Of a stretch of DNA of 64,000 nt, positions 24,120-51,797 are shown in pieces (position 1 is the stretch's first letter; each line of letters begins with the position of its first letter). Origin of the DNA: Colwellia sp. (GTDB taxonomy: Bacteria; Pseudomonadota; Gammaproteobacteria; Enterobacterales; Alteromonadaceae). Below the pieces are notes generated by a model. The model did no database searches. It was not told the origin of the DNA and worked only from the letters and a program-made list of their open reading frames with translations. The stretch spans positions 62,001 through 126,000 of the forward strand of contig JABSOW010000007.1 of NCBI GenBank assembly GCA_013215465.1, read 5' to 3'. Position numbers and translations under genes: made by a program.

Positions 24120-25829
<1,710 letters not shown>

Positions 25830-26105
25830 TGCGACGAGAGTCGTGTATGGTTTGGCACTTGATATAATTCAAGTGTCTATTTCTAGTATTTATTTGATTT
25901 TTATAGATATTGCTTGACAGTAATAACGTAGATTTGATTTAATGCTAGAACTAGCTCCTCAGCGGGCTACTAAAACGGATGCGGCATCTTGCCAATGTAT
26001 CTGTACTTTCATAGGCATTCAAATTTTAACATTTGTGCTAACTTGAAAGTTTCCGCTGGAAAAACTAGTAATAGCTAACGCAAGGTGAGATTTTCTTGTA
26101 CTGCC

Positions 26106-26172
26106 CCCATTGACTTGGAGGTTTGTCACAAACCCTTACCAAATGTTAGCAAACAACCTCAATGGGTTTTTT
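26106..26172 (+). terminator. Long hairpin with T6, probable terminator downstream of groEL
   Basis: CCCATTGA (26106-26113) pairs with TCAATGGG (26159-26166), reinforced by AGGTTTG against CAAACAACCT, followed by TTTTTT (26167-26172). The stretch 25830-26105 before it shows no gene. It could end groESL transcription or belong to an unrecognised small RNA. Confidence 0.6.
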
Positions 26173-26258
26173 GAATAAGCCTCATTGACAACATGAATTA
26201 AACTTATGCTTACTGCGTGGTTTATTCGTTGTTGAACAGGCTTACCGATCTGTTGGAT

Positions 26259-26454
26259 ATTGAGATTTTACGTGTATTATCTTCGATAGCTCGAAATTAA
26301 TATTCTTAGAATCTCTAACTGGTAATTGAGATTGTACGTGTATTATCTTCGATAGCTCGAACATTAGTATATTTAGAATCTCTAACTGGTAATTGAGATT
26401 GTGCTTGTATTATCTTCGATAGCTCGAACATTAATATATTTAGAATCTCTAACT
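26259..26454. repeat. Three tandem copies of a 66-67 bp unit with nested inverted repeats
   Basis: Units start at 26259, 26325 and 26392, each beginning ATTGAGATT and ending AGAATCTCTAACT. All three contain TATTATCTTCGATAGCTCGAA. Within each unit GAGATT at the left is complementary to AATCTC at the right, and TTCGA-TAGC-TCGAA forms a small central hairpin, so each unit can fold on itself. Copies differ by a few bases. The whole unit repeats without unique spacers, so it is not a CRISPR. It sits between groEL and the intron; the rest of 26455-26732 contains further short hairpins (TGTTGC/GCAACA at about 26601-26616) and no gene. Confidence 0.85.
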
Positions 26455-27345
26455 CCACTTTAATTAATTTTATCGTGATCGTAGGGATGATTTTGGAGAA
26501 CTGGTAGTACAGTACTTTCAAAAATCATTCTTACAACTTCAACTTGTAGGTATATATATTACTGAGTTTCTATACTCTTAATGTGTATCTATATCATGGT
26601 GTTGCTGGCGCAACATTCAAAATAACCACTACGGTTAAACCATACTGGCGTAAGCCATTAAAGTTATTGTCTCAGCATATCCATTTATATGTTAGTGAGA
26701 TCAACCTTGCGACAGGTTGTAGTCTAGGGATAGTGCGATGTTGGTAACGACATGGTGCGAAGCTTCCTGACAATGTATCTCTGCGAAAGCAGTATTTTAA
26801 CTCGTGAGAGTGAATATAGTCTGTTAATAACAAACGGACTGAGAGCTAGGCTAAACAATAGGGTTAACATATGTGAACTGCTGATAAACACCGTCAACCG
26901 CACTAAGCGAAATGTTGTTGATACGCTTAAACCAAAAGGTACGCGACTGGCTACTCTTTTTATATCTGGGAGTACGTCGTCATACAGTCGTCGGTGGATA
27001 GGCAGAACCTAAGTTGTTTATGTAACTTTAATGGAACTCGGTAAGCCCAATTATTCGCTTAAATTGTTTGTAGTTTAAACATATTGAGCAGGGGATCCGC
27101 AAGGTGAACTGTTGAGTAAGTGGGTAAAGGAGGTTGGAAAAAGCGAATGCTAAATTGTAATGATTTAGATAGATGTGAAATGCATTAATCAGAAATGGTG
27201 CAGACTTCCAACTGGTCTTTAATCGTGAGATAGACGTGTAAAGCTGTCTTTAATTTGATCCTAACGGGATAAGAAATAATTCTTCCCGTTAGGGGATAAT
27301 TACGTCTTGTTCTTGTTAGGTCATAACTAACAGGAGAAAAGCAAG

Positions 27346-29007
27346 ATGAGTGCGGCATTTGTTGTACCTGCGTTCTCCCATCAGGCGCAAAGCTGGCATA
27401 CCATTAATTGGTATTCAGTTGAGCTACAGGTGAGAGGGCTACAAGTACGGATCGCGAAGGCGACTAAGCAACAACAATGGCGTAGGGTGAAAACCTTACA
27501 ACGTTTGTTGGTGCGCTCGTTTGCTGCTAAATGCTTAGCGGTTAAGCGGGTAACTGAGAATCGAGGCAAAAGGACTGCTGGTGTCGATAGGGAGTTATGG
27601 GGTACGCCTGATAGTAAATGGCAGGCTATTTTTCGATTAAAGCGGCAAGGGTATAAACCCAAACCGTTGCGGAGGATATACATTCCAAAGAGTAACGGTA
27701 AACGTCGCCCTTTAGGAATACCGACTATGTTAGATAGGGCAATGCAGGCGTTATTTCTGTTAGCTCTTGAACCTGTGTCGGAAACCACCGCAGATCGGAA
27801 TAGCTATGGCTTTCGACCAATGCGCTCTACGGCTGATGCGATAGAACAATGTTTTGTCAATTTAAGTCGTAAAAGCTCGGCAAAATGGGTGCTTGAGGGA
27901 GATATCAAAGGCTGCTTTGATAACATCAGCCATGACTGGTTACTTGCCAATGTAGTGTTGGATAAACAAGTGCTCAGTAAGTGGTTGAAAGCGGGATTCA
28001 TTGAATTCGGTAAGTTAAACCCAACGAAAGCGGGTACACCACAGGGAGGAATTATTTCTCCTGTGTTGGCTAATTTGGCACTTGATGGTTTGGAAGAGGT
28101 ATTGTATTCCCACTTTGGGAAGAAGAATACTAAAGCCGCCTATAAGACCAAGGTCAATTATGTGAGGTACGCAGATGACTTTATTATTACAGGTATCTCG
28201 AAAGAAATATTAGAAAATGAAGTTAAGCCTATCGTTGAAGCCTTTATGGCTGAGCGTGGTCTTACGTTGTCACCAGAGAAAACGGTGATAACGCATATCA
28301 ATGATGGGTTTGATTTTCTTGGGCAGAATTTACGAAAATATAGCAATGGCAAGATGTTAATCAAACCTAGTCGTAAAAGCGTAAAAAGTGTGCTTGGGAA
28401 GGTTCGCGATATAGTTAAAGGGCAAAAGACTATTACAGCAGGGTTGCTTATTAGTCAGTTAAATCCAATTCTTCGGGGTTGGGCTAACTACCATCGTCAT
28501 ATTGTGGCGAAGGAAACTTTTAATTATGTGGATTATCGGGTGTGGAAACTTCTGTGGCAATGGTGCAGACGACGACATAATAATCGTCATAAACGCTGGA
28601 TTAAAGCTAAATACTTTAAATCAGTGGGGCCAAGAAACTGGACGTTTTCAGGTATTGTGCCTGACGATAGAGTTGTCAGGTTAATGTACACCAATGATAT
28701 ACCGATAAAGCGACACATTAAGATGAAAGCAGAGGCAAATCCGTATGATTTAGCATTTGAGGAATACTTTGAAAAGCGCCAAGAGCGAATTTGGAGAGAC
28801 TCAATGCAAGGTAAACGAATTTTGTTAATGCTTTGGCTCAGACAACAGCAATGTTGTCCCATGTGCCGCCATCCAATTACTAAGGCAACAGAATGGAATA
28901 TTCACCATATTGTTGAAAAGGTAAAAGGTGGTAGTGATGAAATGAGTAACTTAGTGTTGTTGCACCCTAATTGTCATAGGCAATTGCACTCTAAAGTTGC
29001 AAGTTGA
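27346..29007 (+). CDS. ltrA: Group II intron reverse transcriptase/maturase with HNH endonuclease
   Basis: A 553-residue intron-encoded protein that helps the intron RNA splice and insert into DNA. Reverse transcriptase blocks are in order: [78 protein letters not shown], and catalytic YVRYADDF (YADD intact). The maturase X domain follows ([10 protein letters not shown]). An HNH endonuclease closes the protein with [34 protein letters not shown]. It starts ATG 27346 after CAGGAGAAAAGC. All catalytic residues appear intact, so the element may be active. Confidence 0.97.
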
Positions 29008-29014
29008 CTTTCCT

Positions 29015-29050
29015 GCTATGTATTTATACAGTACTGTATGAATACATAGC
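29015..29050. repeat. 17-bp near-perfect palindrome between maturase and DUF2188 genes
   Basis: GCTATGTATTTATACAG (29015-29031) pairs with CTGTATGAATACATAGC (29034-29050), with a single G-T wobble and a 2-bp centre. It lies just after the maturase stop and before the second intron gene. The centre reads ATACAGTACTGTAT, and the flank TACTGTATGAATACATAG partly resembles a LexA site. It could be a terminator-like hairpin, an operator, or a mark of cargo insertion. Confidence 0.7.
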
Positions 29051-29139
29051 AATTGAAGCTGGAATTGGTTATAATGTGTTCGACTATTTAAGTTATGTAG
29101 TCACATTTGTAATTAGCTAATTTTATGGGGAAATCCGCT

Positions 29140-29361
29140 ATGGGTAAAAATCAACATGTAGTAAAAAGAGATGATGGATGGGCTGTGCGTGGCGAGAAAA
29201 ACTCTCGTGATACTTCACACCATCGCACTCAAGAGGAGGCTAGAAAAGCTGCTCGAGATATTGCGATTAATCAAAAAAGTGAAGTCGTCATACATAGGGA
29301 AAATGGTCGTATAAGAGATAAAGACTCATACGGTAATGATCCGCATCCACCGAAAGGATAG
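29140..29361 (+). CDS. DUF2188 family protein carried inside the group II intron
   Basis: A 73-residue basic protein: NQHVVKRDDGWAVRGEKN, then TQEEARKAARDIAINQKSEVVIHRENGRIRDKDSYGNDP. This is the complete DUF2188 pattern (GWAV, T-x-x-EA, A-x-x-IA, S-E-V-V-IH, DGRIR-x-RDSYGNDP); function of the family is unknown. The ATG at 29140 is preferred over 29125 because GGGGA lies 8 bp upstream. It ends 38 bp before domain V, so it lies within intron domain IV with the maturase. A second cargo gene is unusual for group II introns. Confidence 0.85.
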   Translation: MGKNQHVVKRDDGWAVRGEKNSRDTSHHRTQEEARKAARDIAINQKSEVVIHRENGRIRDKDSYGNDPHPPKG

Positions 29362-29399
29362 TCGCTGGTCTGTATTCAGGTATAGACTTATAAAGGCTT

Positions 29400-29433
29400 G
29401 AGCCGTATGCGGGGAAATTCGCACGTACGGTTC
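29400..29433 (+). ncRNA. Group II intron domain V (catalytic hairpin)
   Basis: 34 nt with stem GAGCCGT/ACGGTTC, the inner stem around a GGGGAAATTC loop, and the AGC catalytic triad near the 5' side. It matches the near-invariant domain V of bacterial group II introns. Confidence 0.93.
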
Positions 29434-29517
29434 TTAGGGGAGGGGTGGCTAGCAATAGCTGCTCCTTACCCGACATTTATGCTACGCGCATAAAGCATTA
29501 AACTTGCTTATGGTACT

Positions 29518-51349: not shown

Positions 51350-51376
51350 GCCGCTTCGATTTGCGAAAAAAGAGAA

Positions 51377-51407
51377 TGGTTGGGTATCCTAACGGGCTTT
51401 CCAACCA
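51377..51407 (+). promoter_or_regulatory. Hairpin in the rpsM leader, possible S4 control site
   Basis: TGGTTGG (51377-51383) pairs with CCAACCA (51401-51407) in the rpsM leader. In E. coli, S4 represses this operon by binding a pseudoknot in the leader; equivalence here is inferred from position only. Confidence 0.4.
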
Positions 51408-51440
51408 AAGTAATTTTAAATAACTATAGGAGATGTGTTA

Positions 51441-51797
51441 GTGGCCCGTATCGCTGGCATTAACATCCCTGATCGTAAGCATGCAGTAATCGCCATTACT
51501 GCGATTTACGGTATCGGTGCTACACGTGCGAAAGCAGTTTGTGCAGCAGCAGGTATCGATGAATCAACAAAGATCAGTGAATTAGACGAAGCAAAAATTG
51601 ATTTGCTTCGCGCTGAAGTGGACAAATTTACCGTAGAAGGTGATTTGCGCCGTGAAGTTTCAATGAACATTAAACGTCTTATGGATTTAGGTTGTTACCG
51701 TGGCATCCGTCACCGTCGCAGTCTTCCTCTACGTGGTCAACGCACTAAAACAAATGCGCGCACCCGTAAAGGTCCTCGTAAGCCAATTAAGAAGTAA
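51441..51797 (+). CDS. rpsM: Ribosomal protein uS13
   Basis: S13, 118 residues, from GTG 51441 ([15 protein letters not shown]), chosen because AGGAG lies 8 bp upstream and the length matches E. coli. Ends [20 protein letters not shown]. First gene of the alpha operon. Confidence 0.97.

What the first reader, a model, noticed from the sequence alone, without database searches (positions are those of the whole stretch)
29125..29399. DUF2188 cargo gene inside a group II intron
The sequence shows an intact maturase gene, then a separate ORF with a complete DUF2188 pattern, then domain V. The ORF has its own ribosome binding site and is within the intron boundaries, so it would move with the intron. 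Group II introns normally carry one ORF in domain IV (established). A DUF2188 protein may be a nucleic-acid-related accessory protein or a defence or regulatory cargo; the family has no assigned function, so any role is inference.
Basis: partly seen in the sequence, partly recalled or inferred. Interest (0 to 1): 0.72.

Follow-up and report, generated by a model that had tools for sequence, protein, structure and literature searches.

The report
groEL intron with exchangeable cargo genes
A mobile intron in the stop codon of the bacterial chaperone gene groEL carries a second small gene, and close relatives of this intron carry quite different small genes in the same slot, so this intron lineage appears to act as a vehicle that swaps single-gene cargo.

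Summary
The intron runs 25829-29474, inserted in the groEL stop codon (TA|G...GAC|A; spliced stop TAA). It holds a D1-D4 core, an RT/maturase-HNH protein, a DUF2188 gene (29140-29361) and DV-DVI. In E. coli the empty site is base-exact, and EBS1 pairs 6/6 with the groEL exon in 64 of 67 groEL-stop introns read, the window's included. Of 88 introns measured (window included), 62 have a 208-885 nt spacer between maturase stop and DV and 26 have 58 nt or less. The spacers hold eleven small gene families by my grouping (DUF2188 in 15), and five share an RNA-like element. The slot's ends are fixed: just after the maturase HNH motif and about 39 nt before DV. The nearest intron (same genus, maturase 97% aa) carries a different gene. 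On the maturase tree DUF2188 presence changes 15 times for 15 carriers, as if placed at random; one clean pair gives dN/dS 0.09. I conclude that groEL-stop group II introns have an exchangeable cargo slot in domain IV. DUF2188 matches PADLOC candidate PDC-S16, so phage defence is the leading, unproven, role. How genes enter is unknown. The paper listings and passages I saw reported no such cargo.

The parts
24180..25829 (+). groEL (host gene); its stop codon TAG is 25827-25829, the G being intron nucleotide 1
   Evidence: ORF (upstream TTG start; MASKDV start at 24180); groEL used as query
25829..29474 (+). whole group II intron, 3646 nt, inserted TA|GTGCGAC...TTACCCGAC|A in the groEL stop codon
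   Evidence: 5' end compared over 63 groEL-linked loci of 83; 3' ends compared; base-exact empty site in E. coli for related introns; EBS1-IBS1
26230..26454 (+). 67-nt tandem repeats (about three copies) in the enlarged 5' part of this intron copy
26701..26845 (+). group II domain I-IV core match (RF02012)
   Evidence: 102.8 bits, E 1.9e-20
26961..26966 (+). EBS1 (TATATC), pairs 6 of 6 (one G-U) with the exon end GATGTA
27346..29007 (+). intron-encoded protein: RT, maturase (GIIM) and HNH, 553 aa
28990..29360 (+). exchangeable cassette: from just after the last HNH histidine codon to about 39 nt before DV (the cargo stop codon straddles its right end)
   Evidence: boundaries from pairwise and multiple comparison
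29014..29051 (.). palindrome just after the maturase stop; I saw no shared palindrome when reading the other cassettes' left ends by eye
   Evidence: fold; left ends listed
29140..29361 (+). DUF2188 cargo gene, 73 aa (ORF can be read from 29125)
   Evidence: Pfam 83.6 bits; PADLOC PDC-S16 124.9 bits and phrog_3220 110.8 bits
29361..29397 (+). right-hand module: conserved GTCGCTGG and a stem-loop just before DV, taken as the closing part of domain IV
29398..29474 (+). domains V and VI and intron 3' end
   Evidence: RF00029, 66.3 bits

Best explanation
This is a group II intron that homes to the stop codon of groEL, and its domain IV has, beside the maturase gene, one exchangeable slot for a small passenger gene; here that passenger is DUF2188. 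Shown by sequence: the boundaries, the empty site (in E. coli, for related introns), guide pairing to groEL, fixed slot ends, frequent replacement of the passenger on a related backbone, family-supported passengers on the sense strand, and constraint on DUF2188 (one clean pair). Inferred: (1) because the insertion leaves a stop codon in the unspliced mRNA and restores one after splicing, groEL is unharmed and the passenger is transcribed with the groEL heat-shock mRNA; (2) the passenger moves with the intron by retrohoming; (3) passengers are exchanged by homologous recombination between introns that meet at the same site (shared maturase and DV flanks; tandem introns seen), while first capture is by an unknown route, perhaps template switching by the intron's reverse transcriptase; (4) the passengers benefit the host, most likely by interfering with phages or other mobile elements, DUF2188 being a phage-defence candidate family.
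For: Intron anatomy and insertion in the groEL stop codon. Exact empty site: in the E. coli record AP018488 the 5' flank match ends at 5323782 (query L050) and the 3' flank match begins at 5323783 (query L132). EBS1 pairs 6/6 with groEL in 64 of 67 groEL-stop introns with a readable EBS1 (69 such introns in all, window included), whereas the seven relatives at unrelated sites with a readable EBS1 pair 4-6 of 6 with their own exons, and their EBS1 0-3 of 6 with groEL's exon. Cargo-size spacer in 62 of 88 introns, 58 nt or less in 26. Window versus L112: maturase 94% nt, DV-VI 97%, spacer 47% with a different gene; like contrasts in L010/L011, L023/L026 and L015/L083, and presence against absence in L050/L048. 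Tree: DUF2188 15 changes for 15 carriers, shuffled mean 13.9; maturase versus DUF2188 identity r = 0.13 over 105 non-independent pairs. Sense ORF homologous to one in another spacer in 44 of 62 spacers. DUF2188 dN/dS 0.09, maturase 0.08 (window-L010). Cassette GC below maturase GC in 62 of 62. Tandem introns in L036 and L041 and a tandem-like junction in L006. PDC-S16 match.
Against: No splicing, mobility or expression was measured. All cargo labels together change less often than random (47 against shuffled mean 56, minimum 49), so some cargo is inherited with the intron; L045/L046 keep one cassette at 79% and L032, L037 and L040 keep one gene family. Ten of 62 cargo-size spacers have no protein gene that I could assign. 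dN/dS rests on one clean DUF2188 pair (a second, dS 1.50, gave 0.25) and one DUF1508 pair (0.17); the other 103 DUF2188 and 5 DUF1508 pairs had dS of 1.5 or more, and for three families my motif picked only one sequence, so no pair was tested. Most cargo has no known function; among 41 cargo proteins scanned, one of them DUF2188, only DUF2188 matched PDC models, and one other gave a weak tm_HEPN match. No attC-like core or terminal repeat above chance was found at the cassette ends, so the capture route is open. In the window's own genome the intron is single copy. Maturase relatives on plasmids and in E. coli were not examined for cargo.
Confidence: 0.85

Rival explanations
1. DUF2188 is a working part of the intron, such as an RNA-binding cofactor for splicing or mobility.
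For: It is intact, constrained in the one clean pair and the commonest cargo (15 of 88 introns).
Against: 73 of the 88 introns lack it and 26 have no cargo-size spacer, among them the Azotobacter groEL introns L031 and L033. An intron whose maturase is 97% identical has another gene instead. DUF2188 is also found on plasmids (two regions read, no intron annotated) and in phage records.
Confidence: 0.04
2. Passive hitchhiking: domain IV tolerates insertions, so assorted genes land there by illegitimate recombination with no benefit to intron or host.
For: Cassettes are AT-richer than the maturase in 62 of 62 and differ widely; ten have no assignable ORF.
Against: Fixed slot ends, family-supported ORFs on the sense strand (44 of 62), constraint on DUF2188 in one pair, and repeated use of the same gene families in distant introns are not expected of debris.
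Confidence: 0.1
3. A dedicated but unrecognised integration system loads single genes into the slot, integron-like, rather than recombination between introns.
For: Different genes share the same left and right junction positions, and the last forward ORF ends a median of 5 nt from the right module (52 introns, range -41 to 421).
Against: No attC-like core above chance (1 of 62 cassettes, shuffled mean 2.2) and no terminal inverted or direct repeats above shuffles; no integrase was looked for. L006 shares 134 nt of the window cassette's leader and first codons at 81% and then diverges, which looks like recombination inside a cassette.
Confidence: 0.12
4. The gene lies in flanking DNA and the intron boundary was mis-called.
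For: None found.
Against: DV-VI follows the gene, and the 3' empty-site junction is base-exact for the DUF2188-bearing groEL intron of E. coli LST200A.
Confidence: 0.01

Closest known systems
Group II intron in the groEL stop codon of Azotobacter (Ferat et al. 2003: recalled; Adamidi, Fedorova and Pyle 2003 and Michel et al. 2007: seen only in the reference lists of PMC4424553 and PMC4465626)
   Same: Same insertion site and related intron: L031 and L033 are Azotobacter loci found by this intron's maturase (72% identity) and begin at the groEL stop codon
   Different: The Azotobacter copies are compact: the maturase stop overlaps DV and there is no cargo
Group II introns encoding LAGLIDADG endonucleases (PMC13190283, abstract and passages seen)
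   Same: A non-maturase gene sits in the intron, often in domain IV, with modular exchange between RNA backbone and gene
   Different: There the extra protein is a homing endonuclease; here the maturase is kept and the passengers belong to many families
Integron gene cassettes
   Same: Works like one in that single small genes are exchanged at a fixed slot
   Different: No attC-like core above chance; the vehicle is a retroelement; no integrase was looked for
PADLOC PDC-S16 (phage-defence candidate)
   Same: DUF2188 protein matches PDLC04942 at 124.9 bits, residues 6-78 on profile 1-75 of 75
   Different: A candidate only; the name PDC-S16 does not occur in the main text of the two papers that I searched for it

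Membership tests
Mobile group II intron | 5' GUGYG-type end and 3' end after domain VI | tested here: met
   GTGCGAC at 25829...TTACCCGAC at 29474
Mobile group II intron | Catalytic core: domain I-IV and domain V/VI | tested here: met
   RF02012 102.8 bits, RF00029 66.3 bits
Mobile group II intron | Intron-encoded RT with maturase domain (and HNH) | tested here: met
   PF00078, PF08388, PF01844; TIGR04416 378.7 bits
Mobile group II intron | EBS1 pairs with the 5' exon | tested here: met
   Window 6 of 6; 64 of 67 groEL-stop introns read 6 of 6
Mobile group II intron | Precise insertion into an otherwise intact site | tested here: met
   E. coli empty site, adjacent bases 5323782 and 5323783, for related introns; not tested with the window's own flanks
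Mobile group II intron | Splicing and retrohoming activity | not testable with these tools
   needs RT-PCR and a mobility assay
DUF2188 (PF09954) | Profile match above the gathering score | tested here: met
   83.6 bits, cut-off 22
Phage-defence candidate PDC-S16 | Profile match | tested here: met
   124.9 bits
Phage-defence candidate PDC-S16 | Anti-phage activity | not testable with these tools
   needs phage challenge
Integron gene cassette | attC recombination site | tested here: not met
   RYYYAAC...GTTRRRY core in 1 of 62 cassettes, shuffled mean 2.2; a simple core pattern, not a structural attC model
Integron gene cassette | Integron integrase nearby | not tested
   not searched

The most novel reading that the evidence does not exclude
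groEL-stop group II introns are a general class of gene-delivering retroelement: a homing intron with a dedicated cargo slot that acquires and trades single small genes (many of them phage or plasmid accessory or defence genes, and at least one structured RNA) and delivers them into a heat-shock operon present in nearly all bacteria, at no cost to groEL.
Probability: 0.5. Interest if true: 0.9.

Novelty: new variant of a known kind. Interest (0 to 1): 0.82.

Why it matters
Group II introns are usually treated as selfish retroelements that carry only their own maturase gene (general knowledge). A lineage that keeps its maturase and swaps passengers at a fixed place would be a retroelement counterpart of integron cassettes or transposon cargo, would give host and intron a shared interest, and shows a natural way to carry a gene into a stop codon without damage. 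It also yields a list of small gene families worth testing for phage defence. The open question is directly testable: how does a gene get into domain IV?

Tried and rejected

Rows dropped: one search left out loci without a maturase stop (L053, L090) or without a found DV (L029, L087, L088, L091). The tree left out L076, L081, L084, L085, L086 and L089, and kept L036 although its maturase read had 19 in-frame stops, so that row is partly out of frame. Cargo labels such as wHTH-TM, IgL, ITAAEAR, FKEGxxY and Zn-HNHlike are mine, given by eye to clusters; one cluster of nine, joined through the two-part protein of L052, was split by eye; L006 and L112 were added to wHTH-TM by eye, and L117 and L118 to DUF1508 by sequence likeness. 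Of introns with two genes only one was used as label. The Pfam, PHROG and PADLOC alignment scans saw a selection of 41 cargo ORFs, one of them DUF2188.

Full report
WHAT IS THERE. The window holds a complete group II intron at 25829-29474 (3646 nt). Rfam finds the D1-D4 core (RF02012, 102.8 bits) at 26701-26845 and domains V/VI (RF00029, 66.3 bits) at 29398-29474. The maturase ORF (27346-29007, 553 aa) has RT, maturase and HNH domains. The second ORF lies between maturase and DV, matches DUF2188 at 83.6 bits against a cut-off of 22 and most likely starts at 29140, where its homologues start. In the window's genome the DUF2188 gene is single copy, and of two domain V hits the other is weaker and on another contig.

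BOUNDARIES. The maturase found 80 related loci in the genome collection (the best 80 kept of 534 that encode a relative) and 8 in viral contigs. Maturase stop and DV could both be placed in 83 loci, the window included. In 63 of these 83 groEL lies upstream, and in all 63 the intron begins in or at its stop codon (56 TAG, 5 TGA, 2 TAA, each followed by TGCGAC or a one-base variant). The window reads GGCATGATGTA|GTGCGACGAGAGTCG at the 5' end and TTACCCGAC|A at the 3' end, so the unspliced mRNA keeps a stop codon and the spliced mRNA would read TAA. In the five TGA hosts the base after TG is A, which avoids TGG; I read this as selection to keep a stop codon (inference). EBS1 confirms the target: of 69 introns with an ATGATGTA or ATGATGTG exon, EBS1 was readable in 67, and 64 of these pair 6 of 6 with the exon end; the seven relatives at unrelated sites with a readable EBS1 have other sequences there, which pair 4-6 of 6 with their own exons and 0-3 of 6 with groEL's. 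L012 is an apparent off-site copy with a groEL-type EBS1 (5 of 6 pairs).

EMPTY SITE. Among 5,426 complete E. coli genomes, megablast with two different introns finds 3 genomes with a compact groEL intron (A37, Q5, GF130) and 2 with a groEL intron that carries DUF2188 (LST200A, 23AR1101); annotation of one of each was read. Matches to any part of the queries occur in 5,325 and 5,375 genomes; all but these 3 and 2 cover less than 80% of the query, and the other rows listed cover only flank sequence or the shared intron end. In AP018488 the 5' exon match ends at 5323782 and the 3' exon match begins at 5323783: no base is gained or lost. In the window's family the 5' signature occurs in 15 of 395 sampled genomes and 10 of 52 genera, in its genus in 2 of 39, in the class sample in 1 of 369. 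Such scattering fits mobility.

THE SLOT. With five further introns from the family survey, 88 introns were measured. The distance from maturase stop to DV is 58 nt or less in 26 and 208-885 nt in 62. Of the 69 introns at a groEL stop codon 59 have the long form (57 of 67, plus L016 and L051). In compact introns with a readable HNH end (24 of 26), 42-85 nt lie between that end and DV. Cargo introns keep the maturase up to HPNCHRQLH or a variant of it, then diverge, and become alike again about 39 nt before DV. The last forward ORF ends a median of 5 nt from that right-hand module (52 introns, range -41 to 421). Cassettes are poorer in GC than the maturase of the same intron in 62 of 62.

THE CARGO. 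Clustering gave DUF2188 (15 introns, window and L111 included), small winged-helix-plus-membrane-type proteins (8, my label), lambda ea8.5-related proteins (4, PF20735), DUF1508 (4 as main cargo), and seven further families with two or more members, plus singletons. Several introns carry two genes (for example L012, L016, L017, L042, L062). One passenger, that of L007, has a single other relative in a protein search that reaches only fairly close kin. PHROGs matched 17 families at E <= 0.01 among 41 cargo proteins scanned. PADLOC matched DUF2188 to the candidate PDC-S16 (124.9 bits) and one other cargo weakly to tm_HEPN. The longest ORF is on the sense strand in 46 and on the antisense strand in 11 of 62 spacers; 44 of 62 have a sense ORF homologous to one in another spacer. 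The antisense figure is 14; twelve of these also have a sense match and probably show mirror frames, the other two (L045, L046) hold the RNA-like element. That element is shared by five introns (L025, L045, L046, L061, L067), has no Rfam match and only weak covariation (14 of 49 predicted pairs with a kept double change in 5 sequences; covariation term -1.5 kcal/mol).

EXCHANGE. The closest intron found, L112 from the same genus, is 94% identical in the maturase gene and 97% in DV-VI but 47% in the spacer, and carries another gene family. The same contrast appears in L010/L011, L023/L026 and L015/L083, and as presence against absence in L050/L048 and L024/L028. Against this, L045/L046 share one cassette at 79%, and L032, L037 and L040 share one gene family. 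On the maturase tree (82 tips) DUF2188 presence needs 15 changes for 15 carriers (shuffled mean 13.9, range 10-15), so its distribution shows no phylogenetic signal. Presence of cargo as such is inherited (9 changes, shuffled mean 18). All cargo labels together need 47 changes (shuffled mean 56, minimum 49), so some inheritance exists. Maturase and DUF2188 identities hardly correlate (r = 0.13, 105 non-independent pairs). DUF2188 is constrained: dN/dS 0.09 for window against L010, maturase 0.08 (one clean pair). L006 shares 134 nt of the window cassette's leader and first codons at 81% and then continues as another gene. Tandem introns occur in L036 and L041, with a tandem-like junction in L006. 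I therefore favour exchange by homologous recombination between introns meeting at one site. First capture is unexplained; template switching by the reverse transcriptase is a guess.

FUNCTION. DUF2188 relatives are widespread: 1636 proteins at E <= 0.001, 470 plasmid records and 28 phage records. The three non-intron contexts I read were a plasmid with a DUF2384/RES pair nearby, an island-like plasmid stretch, and a chromosomal region that I judge prophage-like. In 246 genomes of the window's family 8 have a DUF2188 match; the two best are the intron-borne ones (window and L111), the rest at 56% identity or less. A role against phages is the leading idea because of PDC-S16 and the phage-like company of some other cargo, but I know of no measured activity; I put it at about one in three.

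LITERATURE. Ten searches of the open-access library were run. Those aimed at cargo or extra ORFs in group II introns listed no title or abstract that reports passenger genes in a bacterial group II intron; only 20 of 24, 20 of 37 and 25 of 172 papers were listed. The 7 papers naming DUF2188 were seen as listing only. Subscription papers are not covered. Passages of the review PMC4424553 name LAGLIDADG ORFs, degenerate IEPs, ORF-less introns and twintrons as variants. PMC4465626 states that the Azotobacter intron lies close to the groEL end and belongs to a lineage with a large 5' insertion (passages). PMC8919778, PMC3552965, PMC8987985 and PMC13190283 were searched for terms, passages only, and so were PMC12988326 and PMC11514479 for PDC-S16; PMC7923331 was seen as abstract and outline.

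LIMITS. Nothing was measured at the bench. Maturase relatives on plasmids (at least 5000 records match; 1038 of the best 5000 at 60-80% identity) and distant DNA relatives in 521 E. coli genomes were not examined for cargo, so how far the cargo habit reaches outside groEL is open.

VERDICT. Observation confirmed and interpretation supported. The important extension is that the slot is shared and exchangeable across a lineage of groEL-stop introns.

Noticed in passing
L025, L045, L046, L061, L067 (between maturase and DV): Conserved non-coding element (TTTGACCAAACTTTTGAATG... GAGAGCTAGTAGGAAG) without Rfam match, weak covariation in five sequences: possible structured RNA as intron cargo.
   Followed up: partly
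L036, L041, L006, L032, L037: Tandem introns (L036, L041), a tandem-like junction (L006) or what look like intron remnants (L032, L037) directly after another intron's 3' end.
   Followed up: partly
L015, L043, L054, L059, L063 (TGA) and L073, L083 (TAA): Intron first base is A instead of G, so that the unspliced groEL mRNA still has a stop codon.
   Followed up: no
window 26230-26454: About three copies of a 67-nt tandem repeat inside the 5' part of this intron copy; 1517 nt lie between groEL stop and maturase, against roughly 960-1250 nt in the other groEL-linked loci except L055 (1532).
   Followed up: no
L057 5220-5681: Cargo ORF with a weak, below-cut-off match to an ADP-ribosyltransferase family (NarE, 24.4 bits, cut-off 27).
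   Followed up: no
L003 (window genome, contig C24): A second group II domain V hit in the same genome, 41.2 bits.
   Followed up: no
L012: Cargo-bearing intron with groEL-type EBS1 inserted elsewhere (exon CGTCAAGAAGTA): apparent ectopic insertion.
   Followed up: partly
window 51369-51473: Alpha operon ribosome binding site (RF00140, 79.2 bits), ordinary.
   Followed up: no
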